64,000 bases of DNA from Haploplasma modicum ATCC 29102 (GTDB lineage: Bacteria > Bacillota_I > Bacilli_A > Acholeplasmatales > Acholeplasmataceae), in contig NZ_JHYB01000004.1 in the NCBI RefSeq assembly GCF_000687835.1, positions 1 to 64,000 on the forward strand. The letters run 5' to 3'. The stretch's first letter is position 1, and each line of letters begins with the position of its first letter. The position numbers and the translations under genes were made by a program. Positions 49,841-52,415 of this stretch are shown piece by piece. The notes under the pieces are model-generated. The model saw nothing but the letters and a program-made list of their open reading frames with translations, was not told the origin of the DNA and did not search any database.

Positions 49841-50023
49841 TTAAATCCTTTCTTTCACACTTATCTTGAAACTATTTAATCCCGACATTTTTTTAATTGA
49901 GTCGATTTCACCATAATTAAAATTAGGATTATATAATGACTCCCAAATACCAATATACTCTAGAGTATTTCTATTTCTAAGCCAATTTAATATTAAAAAA
50001 CTACTATATCTTCCTTTTAACAA
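49841..50023 (-). pseudogene. KilA-N domain remnant
   Basis: About 60 codons matching the middle of a KilA-N domain: RYSSFLILNWLRNRNTLEYI and GIWESLYNPNFNYGEID, then MSGLNSFKISVKERI. KilA-N is a DNA-binding domain common in phages and phage-derived proteins, usually 250 residues or more. Here there is no start codon with a ribosome site (a TAG stands directly upstream), and a stop follows KERI. A four-codon ATG-AGT-GAA-GTT piece in another frame just upstream may be the old start. It is best read as a decayed phage-type gene. Confidence 0.7.
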
Positions 50024-50073: not shown

Positions 50074-50223
50074 ACAATGATTTTACTTTTATAAAAATAA
50101 AAAAGGATTTCAAAATGAAATCATGTTGATTAAATATGTGTTGTCCGCACCGAGTTTGTAGCACTATTTTGCTTAGTTGCACCGATTTTGTAGTATTCGT
50201 CGTACAGAGTTGATAGTTTTTAC
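50074..50223. repeat. 150-bp direct repeat, copy A (downstream of rhuM)
   Basis: It is nearly identical to copy B at 51280-51427. From left: TTTTACTTTTATAAAAATAA, a terminator-like hairpin GATTTCA-AAA-TGAAATC, then TGTTGTCCGCACCGAGTT and three degenerate units, each about 15 bases, reading GCACCGAGTTTGTAG, GCACCGATTTTGTAG and GTACAGAGTTGATAG. Both copies are in the same orientation, one on each side of the RhuM gene. Confidence 0.85.
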
Positions 50224-50245: not shown

Positions 50246-51241
50246 TTAATTATTCCTATTAATCAAATTAATAATAATCTTAATAACAACATCCCTTTCA
50301 GTTGGATCACTTAGAGCGATCATTAATACTAGTGCAACTAATGTATTATCTTCAACTAATTTAGTTCCATCTTCTTTATATAAAATATTATTCATATCCA
50401 AAAAATATACGAAAATACTTGCTGCTATTCTTTTATTACCATCATAAAATGAATGATTTTTAACAATAAAATATAAAAGATTAGCAGCTTTCTCTTCTAC
50501 AGATGGATATAACTCTTCACCAAAAGCTGTTTGATAAATTGTAGAAAGTGAACTTTCAAATGACTTATCTTTCTCTCTTCCAAATAATGAACCTTCTTTA
50601 TATTCTTTTAAACTCCTAATCTCATTCATAATTTGGCTATATAATAACTTGTTTTTCCCAAAATCTTCAGTGGTATTATTTATAGTTAATAGTCTATGAT
50701 CATATTTGTCAAGTGTATCTAATGCTAAACTATATTTATTTATTACACTAAATAGACTGTTCGACTCTATTTTATCCAAATTTTTTCTTTTATATAATTC
50801 GCTTATAAACTTTACTGATTTTGTAAAATCAGTGTATTGTTCTTTACTTTGAATCAATTTATTTTGATTTATTGCATAACCTCTCAACATATAATCTTTA
50901 ATAACTCCTAAAGACCAAATTCTAAATTTAGTTGCCACTTCTGATTTTATTCTATAACCAACAGAAATAATTAAATCTAAATTATAATGTAAAATATTTC
51001 TTACTACTTTACGATTCCCTTCCGTTTGAACTTGTCGGAATAACCGACTAGTTGACTTTTCATCAAGTTCGTTTTCTTCATAAATATTTCTAATATGATC
51101 TGTTAAATTGGTTCTTGAAGTGCCAAATAAATTTGTTAATTGATTTTGAGATAGCCAAACTGTTTCTTCCTCAATATCTATATTGACTTCAATGCTAAAA
51201 TCATTATCTTTGAATACAATAATATCTTGTTCTTTTTCCAT
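50246..51241 (-). CDS. rhuM: RhuM-family protein with Doc/Fic domain
   Basis: A 331-residue protein. The N-terminal RhuM part (about 1-130) has ETVWLSQNQLTNLFGTSRTN, SRLFRQVQTEGNRKVVRNIL and YNLDLIISVGYRIKS. The C-terminal part (about 170-330) carries the Doc-type Fic motif HSFYDGNKRIAASIF, which fits HxFxDGNKRxA, the form used by Doc to phosphorylate EF-Tu. RhuM proteins occur in pathogenicity and defence islands; their role is not settled. The ATG at 51239-51241 is preceded by AAAGGA at 9 bases. No antitoxin gene overlaps it. It is flanked by direct repeats. Confidence 0.9.
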   Translation of the reverse strand: MEKEQDIIVFKDNDFSIEVNIDIEEETVWLSQNQLTNLFGTSRTNLTDHIRNIYEENELDEKSTSRLFRQVQTEGNRKVVRNILHYNLDLIISVGYRIKSEVATKFRIWSLGVIKDYMLRGYAINQNKLIQSKEQYTDFTKSVKFISELYKRKNLDKIESNSLFSVINKYSLALDTLDKYDHRLLTINNTTEDFGKNKLLYSQIMNEIRSLKEYKEGSLFGREKDKSFESSLSTIYQTAFGEELYPSVEEKAANLLYFIVKNHSFYDGNKRIAASIFVYFLDMNNILYKEDGTKLVEDNTLVALVLMIALSDPTERDVVIKIIINLINRNN

Positions 51242-51279
51242 TAGTATCATTCCTTTCTAACCTATAATAGTTAGAACTG

Positions 51280-51427
51280 AACAATTTTACTTTTATAAAA
51301 ATAAAAAAGGAATTCAAATTGAAATCCTGTTGTTTGTATATGTGTTGTCCGCACCGAGTTTATAGCACTATTTTGCTTGGTTGCACCGAGTTGATAGTAT
51401 TCGTCGTACAGAGTTGATAGTTTTTAA
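51280..51427. repeat. 150-bp direct repeat, copy B (between toxin and rhuM)
   Basis: Second copy of the repeat at 50074-50223, with the same order: A/T leader, terminator-like hairpin (GGAATTCAA / TTGAAATCC), TGTTGTCCGCACCGAGTT and three 15-base units (GCACCGAGTTTATAG, GCACCGAGTTGATAG, GTACAGAGTTGATAG). It lies after the TenpN-like toxin's stop and before the RhuM start. In this copy the three units are more alike, suggesting it is closer to the original sequence. Confidence 0.85.
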
Positions 51428-51502
51428 CATCTAGCTAATCATTCATAATTTTTATTAAATAAACTTAAGTTTTTCAATTATATATATTTAAATATTTATT
51501 AT

Positions 51503-51958
51503 TTATATATCTAATAAATTATGAAAGTATTGCAATGTTGTGTATTTGTATTTTCTCATGTATTCTCTATCATGAATTTTTTTTATTCCTTTATGATGAT
51601 TAATATAAACACTTAAATATTCCATTAAGTTTTCTTTAATCATAGATATGTTTAATATCATTTCTGAGTGTTCGTCTTTATCAACAACTGTTTCATCACC
51701 AATATACTCTTCATTTTTTATTATTAAGGATTTACTAAAATCAATACCTGAATTATTATTTTGGCTTCGTATACTATTTTTAAATAAATATCCATTCTTA
51801 TGGTTTATATTTGATCGAAATGGTGTACAAAGATATAGATCAGTACTAATTTTAAAAACAATAATTATATATGGTCTCATATTATCAATTTCTATCTCTG
51901 GATAATCATTTTGTGGATAATCATCAAAAAATTTATCACTTAACATTTTAATTTTCAT
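51503..51958 (-). CDS. tenpN: Type III toxin, TenpN/ToxN-like endoribonuclease
   Basis: A 151-residue protein with MKIKMLSDKFFDDYP at the start, RPYIIIVFKISTDLYLCTPF and RSNINHKNGYLF in the core, then SGIDFSKSLIIKNEEYIGDE and a C-terminal REYMRKYKYTTLQYFHNLL. These follow the TenpN pattern (FAIPLRS-x-x-xH, LDFSKAV, YxxSTLQxxH). Type III toxins are RNases that cut mRNA and are held inactive by a repeated RNA made from the same promoter. That architecture is present upstream: promoter, two tandem repeats, terminator, toxin. The ribosome site AAGGA lies 9 bases before the ATG. Likely role: phage defence by abortive infection or plasmid-like maintenance (inference). Confidence 0.86.
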   Translation of the reverse strand: MKIKMLSDKFFDDYPQNDYPEIEIDNMRPYIIIVFKISTDLYLCTPFRSNINHKNGYLFKNSIRSQNNNSGIDFSKSLIIKNEEYIGDETVVDKDEHSEMILNISMIKENLMEYLSVYINHHKGIKKIHDREYMRKYKYTTLQYFHNLLDI

Positions 51959-51979
51959 AAATAATTTTTCCTTCTTTCA

Positions 51980-52010
51980 AAAAAATAAAGAGGAACTATT
52001 GTTCCTCTTT
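51980..52010 (-). terminator. Terminator between antitoxin RNA and toxin gene
   Basis: Leftward AAAGAGGAAC-AATA-GTTCCTCTTT followed by ATTTTTTTG. A 10-bp perfect stem. In type III systems a leaky terminator here sets the antitoxin:toxin ratio. Confidence 0.9.
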
Positions 52011-52145
52011 AGTGATCTATCTTCGTTTGGTCACTTTTTATTTTACCGATGTGTCAGAACCATCACACATCTTCTTCACTCAGCCAATTTTTATTTTACC
52101 GACGTATCAGAGCTGTCATACGTCATCTTTTAACGAAGAAATACA
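52011..52145 (-). ncRNA. tenpI: Type III antitoxin RNA (TenpI/ToxI-like), two 53-nt pseudoknot repeats
   Basis: Read leftward. Repeat 1 stem GACGTAT/ATACGTC (52101-52124) and repeat 2 stem GATGTGT/ACACATC (52048-52071) are exactly 53 bases apart. Two base pairs differ between them and both change on both sides. The 10-base loops hold CAGC (repeat 1) and TGGT (repeat 2); these pair with GCTG (52081-52084) and ACCA (52028-52031) 3' of a shared 13-base linker GGTAAAATAAAAA. The loop pairings also covary, giving an H-type pseudoknot in each repeat. Partial units flank both ends. This is the antitoxin design of type III systems, where each processed repeat binds one toxin. Confidence 0.88.
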
Positions 52146-52150
52146 CCTTC

Positions 52151-52179
52151 ATATTACTATATTAATAATGAAATGTCAA
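52151..52179 (-). promoter_or_regulatory. Promoter of the type III toxin-antitoxin operon
   Basis: Read leftward: TTGACA (52174-52179), a 17-base spacer, TAATAT (52151-52156). The transcript would begin near 52145, just before the repeat array. Confidence 0.9.
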
Positions 52180-52289: not shown

Positions 52290-52390
52290 TAAAAACTTCA
52301 CTTACGAAGTGTTTTCCTAAGTTCATTATACATTCTTATAATTATTGTGTCAAGAAATATTGCTTGATTGTGTTTTAAAAATTCATAAAT

Positions 52391-52415
52391 AAAAAAGGAT
52401 TTCAAATTGAAATCC
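52391..52415 (-). terminator. Terminator after tRNA-Ser
   Basis: Leftward GGATTTCA-ATT-TGAAATCC followed by six T residues. The hairpin is almost the same as those inside the two 150-bp repeats. Confidence 0.87.

What the first reader, a model, noticed from the sequence alone, without database searches (positions are those of the whole stretch)
51503..52179. A complete type III toxin-antitoxin system (TenpIN-like) with covarying pseudoknot repeats
Seen: a consensus promoter (TTGACA-17-TAATAT), two 53-nt repeats, a 10-bp-stem terminator, then a 151-residue toxin gene. The stems GACGTAT/ATACGTC and GATGTGT/ACACATC differ at two pairs with compensation, and the loop-to-tail pairings CAGC/GCTG and TGGT/ACCA differ at three positions with compensation. 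The linker GGTAAAATAAAAA is invariant. Known: ToxIN, CptIN and TenpIN have exactly this order and H-type pseudoknots. Inference: the toxin C-terminus (YKYTTLQYFH) and the SGIDFSK block place it in TenpN. Only two full repeats, each 53 nt, is a short array with long units, so the RNA could be a new variant.
Basis: partly seen in the sequence, partly recalled or inferred. Interest (0 to 1): 0.88.

Follow-up and report, generated by a model that had tools for sequence, protein, structure and literature searches.

The report
TenpIN toxin–antitoxin with closed RNA array
This is a bacterial poison-and-antidote gene pair in which the antidote is an RNA; it belongs to a known family, but comparison with about 80 relatives shows an extra helix, not described in any source I could read, that ties the two ends of the antidote RNA together.

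Summary
On the minus strand there is a promoter, two 53-nt H-type pseudoknot repeats, a terminator and a 151-aa toxin. The toxin passes the NCBIfam TenpIN equivalog cut-off (158.7 bits against 90), and its AlphaFold model has the CptN/AbiQ fold as its best full-length matches. It is therefore a TenpIN type III toxin-antitoxin system.

The suggestion that 53-nt units in two copies make a new variant is not supported: a TenpIN with 53 nt x 2.1 repeats is already tabulated (Fusobacterium, PMC6315513).

Using only the RNA linker as a pattern, I collected 82 distinct arrays of the same type, mostly from gut Bacillota. 80 have exactly two units, and most sit directly upstream of a TenpN gene. Their toxins form one clade. 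Both pseudoknot stems covary.

It pairs the RNA's 5' leader with the tail after the last repeat and so closes the whole array: TCTTCGTT/AACGAAGA in the window. 74 of 82 arrays have it at a fixed position, with 31 different 5' strands (permutation z = 10.8). 13 ToxI arrays show nothing comparable.

P0 as an RNA helix is well supported. Its role is inference.

The parts
52151..52179 (-). promoter TTGACA-17-TAATAT of the antitoxin array
   Evidence: 10 of 12 consensus positions
52132..52139 (-). P0 5' strand TCTTCGTT in the leader, a few nt after the predicted transcription start
   Evidence: pairs 8/8 with 52020-52027; in the MFE fold; 74 of 82 relatives have P0
52081..52124 (-). antitoxin unit 1: S1 52124-52118/52107-52101, S2 52115-52112/52084-52081, A-rich loop 52100-52085
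   Evidence: covariation
52072..52080 (-). inter-unit linker AGTGAAGAA, likely processing region
   Evidence: sequence; cleavage here is inference by analogy with ToxI
52028..52071 (-). antitoxin unit 2: S1 52071-52065/52054-52048, S2 52062-52059/52031-52028, A-rich loop 52047-52032
   Evidence: covariation
52020..52027 (-). P0 3' strand AACGAAGA, directly after S2 of unit 2
51986..52011 (-). intrinsic terminator between antitoxin and toxin (11-pair stem, T run)
51503..51958 (-). TenpN toxin, 151 aa, ATG start preceded by a purine-rich ribosome-binding site (GAAAGAAGGA)
   Evidence: NF047358 TenpIN 158.7 bits, cut-off 90; AlphaFold pLDDT 94.5; best PDB fold match CptN 4rmo

Best explanation
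A complete chromosomal TenpIN type III toxin-antitoxin locus. One promoter drives an RNA with two 53-nt H-type pseudoknots. A leaky terminator keeps toxin mRNA low. TenpN, an endoribonuclease, is expected to cut the array between units and to be blocked by the pseudoknots it has cut out, and to be freed when transcription stops, for example on phage infection. In this TenpI subfamily the precursor carries an extra helix, P0, between the 5' leader and the tail of the last unit. P0 closes the whole array and leaves the linker before unit 1 and the linker between the units single-stranded. Shown here: toxin family, both pseudoknot stems, P0 as a covarying helix, the two-unit rule. Inferred: P0 keeps the two units together during folding and processing and shields the 3' tail of the last unit until the leader is cut off, favouring assembly of a 2:2 complex (my probability for this particular role about 0.35).
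For: TenpIN equivalog hit above cut-off. AlphaFold model pLDDT 94.5 whose best PDB matches are the type III toxin CptN 4rmo (TM 0.56, prob 0.99), then MazF-fold toxins, with AbiQ 4glk at TM 0.57. Gene order promoter-repeats-terminator-toxin. S1/S2: 52 non-redundant arrays, 98.6-99.7% of cells paired; covariation score of the whole structure 0.318 against 0.125 in shuffles and at most 0.094 when slid. P0: at least 6 bp at a fixed register in 74 of 82 arrays, 31 different 5' strands; mean helix score 16.4 against 10.6 +/- 0.54 for permuted tails, z = 10.8, and z = 10.1 when permuted only within S1 classes. The leader pairs better with the last tail than with the unit-1 tail (53 better, 17 equal, 12 worse). 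P0 is in the window's MFE fold. Arrays found by RNA pattern alone lead to TenpN in most loci. Toxins of these arrays form one clade, SH-aLRT 97.
Against: No expression, cleavage or toxicity data. Pfam and PADLOC give no hit for the toxin. Foldseek E-values are weak (best 0.017). The permutation tests do not fully remove shared ancestry: within the small GTCC class alone z is only 1.3. RNAalifold did not predict P0 from the MAFFT alignment, in which P0 is out of register between classes. Eight of 82 arrays lack P0 at the fixed register (two of them, L054 and L141, have a shifted 9-bp helix), so P0 is not strictly required. The role of P0 is untested.
Confidence: 0.85

Rival explanations
1. P0 mainly protects the RNA: it hides the 5' end of the transcript and the 3' tail from 5'-end-dependent and single-strand RNases, prolonging the life of the precursor, and has no role in assembly.
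For: In the window P0 begins a few nt after the predicted start site, so the 5' end is in a duplex. Many relatives have a further hairpin just 5' of P0, which would act in the same sense.
Against: Where a 5' hairpin is already present P0 would be redundant for this purpose. P0 pairs with the tail of the last unit in particular, not with any convenient partner.
Confidence: 0.3
2. The leader acts as an alternative partner that can switch between the tail of unit 1 and the tail of the last unit, a regulatory switch of processing.
For: In 17 of 82 arrays both tails pair equally well with the leader and in 12 the unit-1 tail pairs better.
Against: In 53 of 82 the last tail pairs better, and in arrays with diverged units the leader fits only the last tail (L051, L052, L112, L119, L120).
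Confidence: 0.12
3. P0 is a by-product of shared ancestry or of a remnant partial repeat, not a selected helix.
For: Most arrays share CTTCGC or CTTCATC leaders; related rows inflate permutation tests; z is only 1.3 within the GTCC class.
Against: The leader is complementary to the tail, not similar to it, so it is not a partial repeat. Unrelated strand pairs such as GCATCCT/AGGATGC, GGGTGGTTTC/GAAGCCGCCC, CTACGT/GCGTAG and CATCATCGTTT/AAATGATGATG occur at the same place; z = 10.2 among the 44 arrays outside the GTCC class.
Confidence: 0.06
4. A decayed or non-functional TA locus.
For: Several relatives have broken or missing toxins.
Against: In the window promoter, both units, terminator, ribosome-binding site and the full toxin with all invariant residues of 46 TenpN are intact.
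Confidence: 0.05

Closest known systems
TenpIN (TenpIN of Photorhabdus luminescens; NCBIfam NF047358)
   Same: Toxin family by curated profile; order promoter-repeats-terminator-toxin; TenpIN of Photorhabdus aborts phages (PMC5377504).
   Different: Antitoxin units carry GGTAAAATAAAA loops and the array is closed by P0; toxins of such arrays form their own clade.
Fusobacterium tenpIN listed as 53 nt x 2.1 repeats (PMC6315513, Table 3)
   Same: Unit length and copy number.
   Different: A Fusobacterium locus with 53-nt units (L025) has other stem and loop sequences and no P0; whether it is one of the tabulated loci was not checked.
CptIN of Eubacterium rectale (4RMO)
   Same: Two-unit array, 45-nt H-type pseudoknot with a long A-rich loop 2 (PMC4627078); best fold match of the toxin.
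   Different: Toxin sequence family and RNA sequence differ; no array-closing helix appears in the passages read.
ToxIN / AbiQ
   Same: Mechanism of self-processing and pseudoknot inhibition (PMC5086642, PMC8860590); AbiQ is a full-length fold match.
   Different: Units of 34-36 nt in 2.8-5.5 copies; 13 ToxI arrays show no leader-trailer helix.

Membership tests
TenpIN type III TA | toxin matches the TenpIN profile above curated cut-off | tested here: met
   NF047358 158.7 bits, cut-off 90
TenpIN type III TA | tandem RNA repeats directly upstream | tested here: met
   two 53-nt units
TenpIN type III TA | terminator between repeats and toxin, single promoter upstream | tested here: met
TenpIN type III TA | repeat folds as H-type pseudoknot | tested here: met
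   S1 and S2 of both units covary in 52 arrays
TenpIN type III TA | MazF/Kid-like type III toxin fold | tested here: met
   model pLDDT 94.5; best match CptN 4rmo TM 0.56, AbiQ 4glk TM 0.57; Foldseek E-values weak
TenpIN type III TA | toxin is an endoribonuclease that processes the repeats and is neutralised by them | not testable with these tools
   needs experiment
TenpIN type III TA | abortive infection or plasmid stabilisation | not testable with these tools
   needs experiment
ToxIN (Pfam ToxN_toxin PF13958) | toxin matches ToxN profile | tested here: not met
   no Pfam family hits the toxin at E<=1; the genome has no PF13958 match
any Rfam RNA family | covariance-model match to the array | tested here: not met
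   no match within the array even at E<=1; two weak plastid 3'UTR matches cover the terminator only

The most novel reading that the evidence does not exclude
P0 makes the TenpI precursor a closed two-pseudoknot module that presets a 2:2 toxin-RNA complex and the order of cutting: leader first, last tail last. That would be an assembly route unlike the open multi-repeat arrays of ToxI.
Probability: 0.3. Interest if true: 0.65.

Novelty: new variant of a known kind. Interest (0 to 1): 0.45.

Why it matters
How type III toxins and their RNA antitoxins assemble into closed complexes of fixed stoichiometry is described as not fully understood (PMC8860590). A helix that joins the ends of a two-unit antitoxin precursor, kept across dozens of gut Bacillota loci by compensating changes, gives a simple handle: break P0, restore it with the partner change, and read processing, stoichiometry and phage protection. 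The set of 82 arrays also allows an Rfam-type model for an antitoxin that Rfam does not cover.

Tried and rejected
RNAalifold on the raw alignment did not show P0 because P0 shifts by 1-2 columns between classes. A general P0 in all type III systems was rejected: 1 of 13 ToxI arrays and 2 of 9 other TenpI arrays (L004, L027) reach p<0.05. Attenuation by P0 was rejected: its 3' strand (52020-52027) does not overlap the terminator stem (52011-51986). The 53-nt unit as a novelty was rejected. The 29-bp repeat's match in G041 is only an ordinary terminator. The original TenpIN survey, Blower et al. 2012 (10.1093/nar/gks231), is not held, so an earlier description of P0 cannot be excluded.

Full report
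What is there. On the minus strand, from right to left: promoter TTGACA-17-TAATAT (52179-52151), leader, two 53-nt repeats (52125-52020), intrinsic terminator (52011-51986), purine-rich ribosome-binding site, and a 151-aa ORF (51958-51503). The window is position 1-64000 of contig C4 of a 1.2-Mb genome of phylum Bacillota with one copy of this toxin. It is in the same class as genomes whose arrays are identical to those of Dielma fastidiosa and of an Erysipelotrichaceae MAG. The many 0.3-0.9-Mb genomes in one genus of its family suggest the Acholeplasmatales; that is inference.

Toxin. NCBIfam TenpIN equivalog, 158.7 bits against a cut-off of 90. Pfam and PADLOC have no hit. An AlphaFold model from 46 aligned TenpN sequences has mean pLDDT 94.5. 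Its first Foldseek match in the PDB is the type III toxin CptN (4rmo, TM 0.56), then MazF toxins, and AbiQ (4glk) at TM 0.57; E-values are weak, so this is support rather than proof. Residues invariant in 46 TenpN, among them R28, P46, R48, H53, D73, K76, Y118, Y144 and F145, are present.

Pseudoknots. Each unit is a 7-bp S1, a 2-nt loop, a 4-nt S2 strand, TCTG, S1, the A-rich loop GGTAAAATAAAA plus a few nt, then the S2 strand. The exact pattern TCTGANNNNNNGRTAAAATAAAAN{24,42}TCTGA retrieved 83 stretches of genome contigs and 3 viral contigs. Together with loci found by the toxin, 82 distinct arrays were parsed: 80 with two units, 2 with three, period 51-55 nt. The pattern demands at least two units, so single-unit arrays would be missed. 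S1 and S2 form at 98.6-99.7% of cells in 52 non-redundant arrays, with two-sided changes in 16 of 22 pairs. 62 of the 82 have an intact TenpN ORF directly downstream, and others have a broken or contig-truncated one. Toxins of this array type form one clade against 8 TenpN with other arrays (SH-aLRT 97, quick tree).

P0. In the window the leader TCTTCGTT (52139-52132) pairs over 8 bp with AACGAAGA (52027-52020), directly after S2 of unit 2. It appears in the MFE fold. Across the 82 arrays, 74 have at least 6 bp at the same register, with 31 distinct 5' strands. Against permuted tails the mean score is 16.4 versus 10.6 +/- 0.54 (z = 10.8); permuting only within S1 classes gives z = 10.1. Fully different strand pairs occupy the place, for example GCATCCT/AGGATGC (L051) and GGGTGGTTTC/GAAGCCGCCC (L119). 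The leader prefers the tail of the last unit to that of unit 1. Exceptions are L054 and L141 (shifted 9-bp helices) and L078, L079, L093, L098, L101, L129. 13 ToxI arrays show no such helix beyond chance; of 9 other TenpI arrays, L004 (9 bp) and L027 (8 bp) do.

How it probably works. As in ToxIN and CptIN, TenpN should cut the precursor between units and be held inactive by the products (PMC5086642, PMC8860590); TenpIN of Photorhabdus aborts phage infection (PMC5377504). P0 leaves the linkers before unit 1 and between the units open and covers the tail of unit 2, so cutting off the leader would be needed to free the last tail. I think it most likely that P0 keeps both units together during folding and assembly; protection of the RNA ends is a close rival. 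P0 does not overlap the terminator, so attenuation is unlikely.

What is known. A 53-nt x 2.1-repeat TenpIN is in Table 3 of PMC6315513, so length and copy number are not new. Rfam 15 has no match within the array. None of the passages read mentions a helix closing the array, but the original TenpIN survey was not available.

Verdict. The locus is a new member of TenpIN. The array-closing helix makes it, with its subfamily, a new variant of a known kind, at moderate interest.

Noticed in passing
window 51290-51440 and 50086-50222, with 52387-52415: The intergenic stretch after TenpN is repeated (92% over 137 bp) after the neighbouring RhuM-Fic gene, and both copies end in a near-copy of the 29-bp terminator next to tRNA-Ser. 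It looks like two modules inserted in series behind the tRNA, each with its own copy; no integrase is visible nearby.
   Followed up: partly
window 50246-51250 (-): RhuM-Fic protein, PADLOC candidate defence family PDC-S23 (E=3e-122), next to TenpIN: a small defence cluster behind tRNA-Ser.
   Followed up: partly
window 51345-51422: Three direct 23-nt repeats of the type TTGGTTGCACCGAGTTGATAGTA in the repeated intergenic stretch; no unusual single-strand fold.
   Followed up: partly
window 52353-52257 (-): Perfect sigma-70 promoter TTGACA-17-TATAAT followed by two hairpins, one with 15-16 bp, and no ORF: a possible small RNA between tRNA-Ser and TenpIN.
   Followed up: no
L057, L084, L099, L114, L117, L120, L130, L137: Intact two-unit TenpI arrays without a recognisable TenpN downstream: orphan antitoxins or remnants of deleted toxins, which could neutralise toxins in trans.
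   Followed up: partly
L141 382-466 on the minus strand (IMG/VR contig): A TenpI array with both pseudoknots on a viral contig, without TenpN in the 11.5 kb downstream and with an integrase-like ORF after it. It may be a phage-borne decoy antitoxin, comparable to the pseudo-ToxI of phage TE.
   Followed up: partly
window 49841-50023 (-): Remnant of a KilA-N domain protein (Pfam E=0.0024) beyond the RhuM-Fic gene.
   Followed up: no
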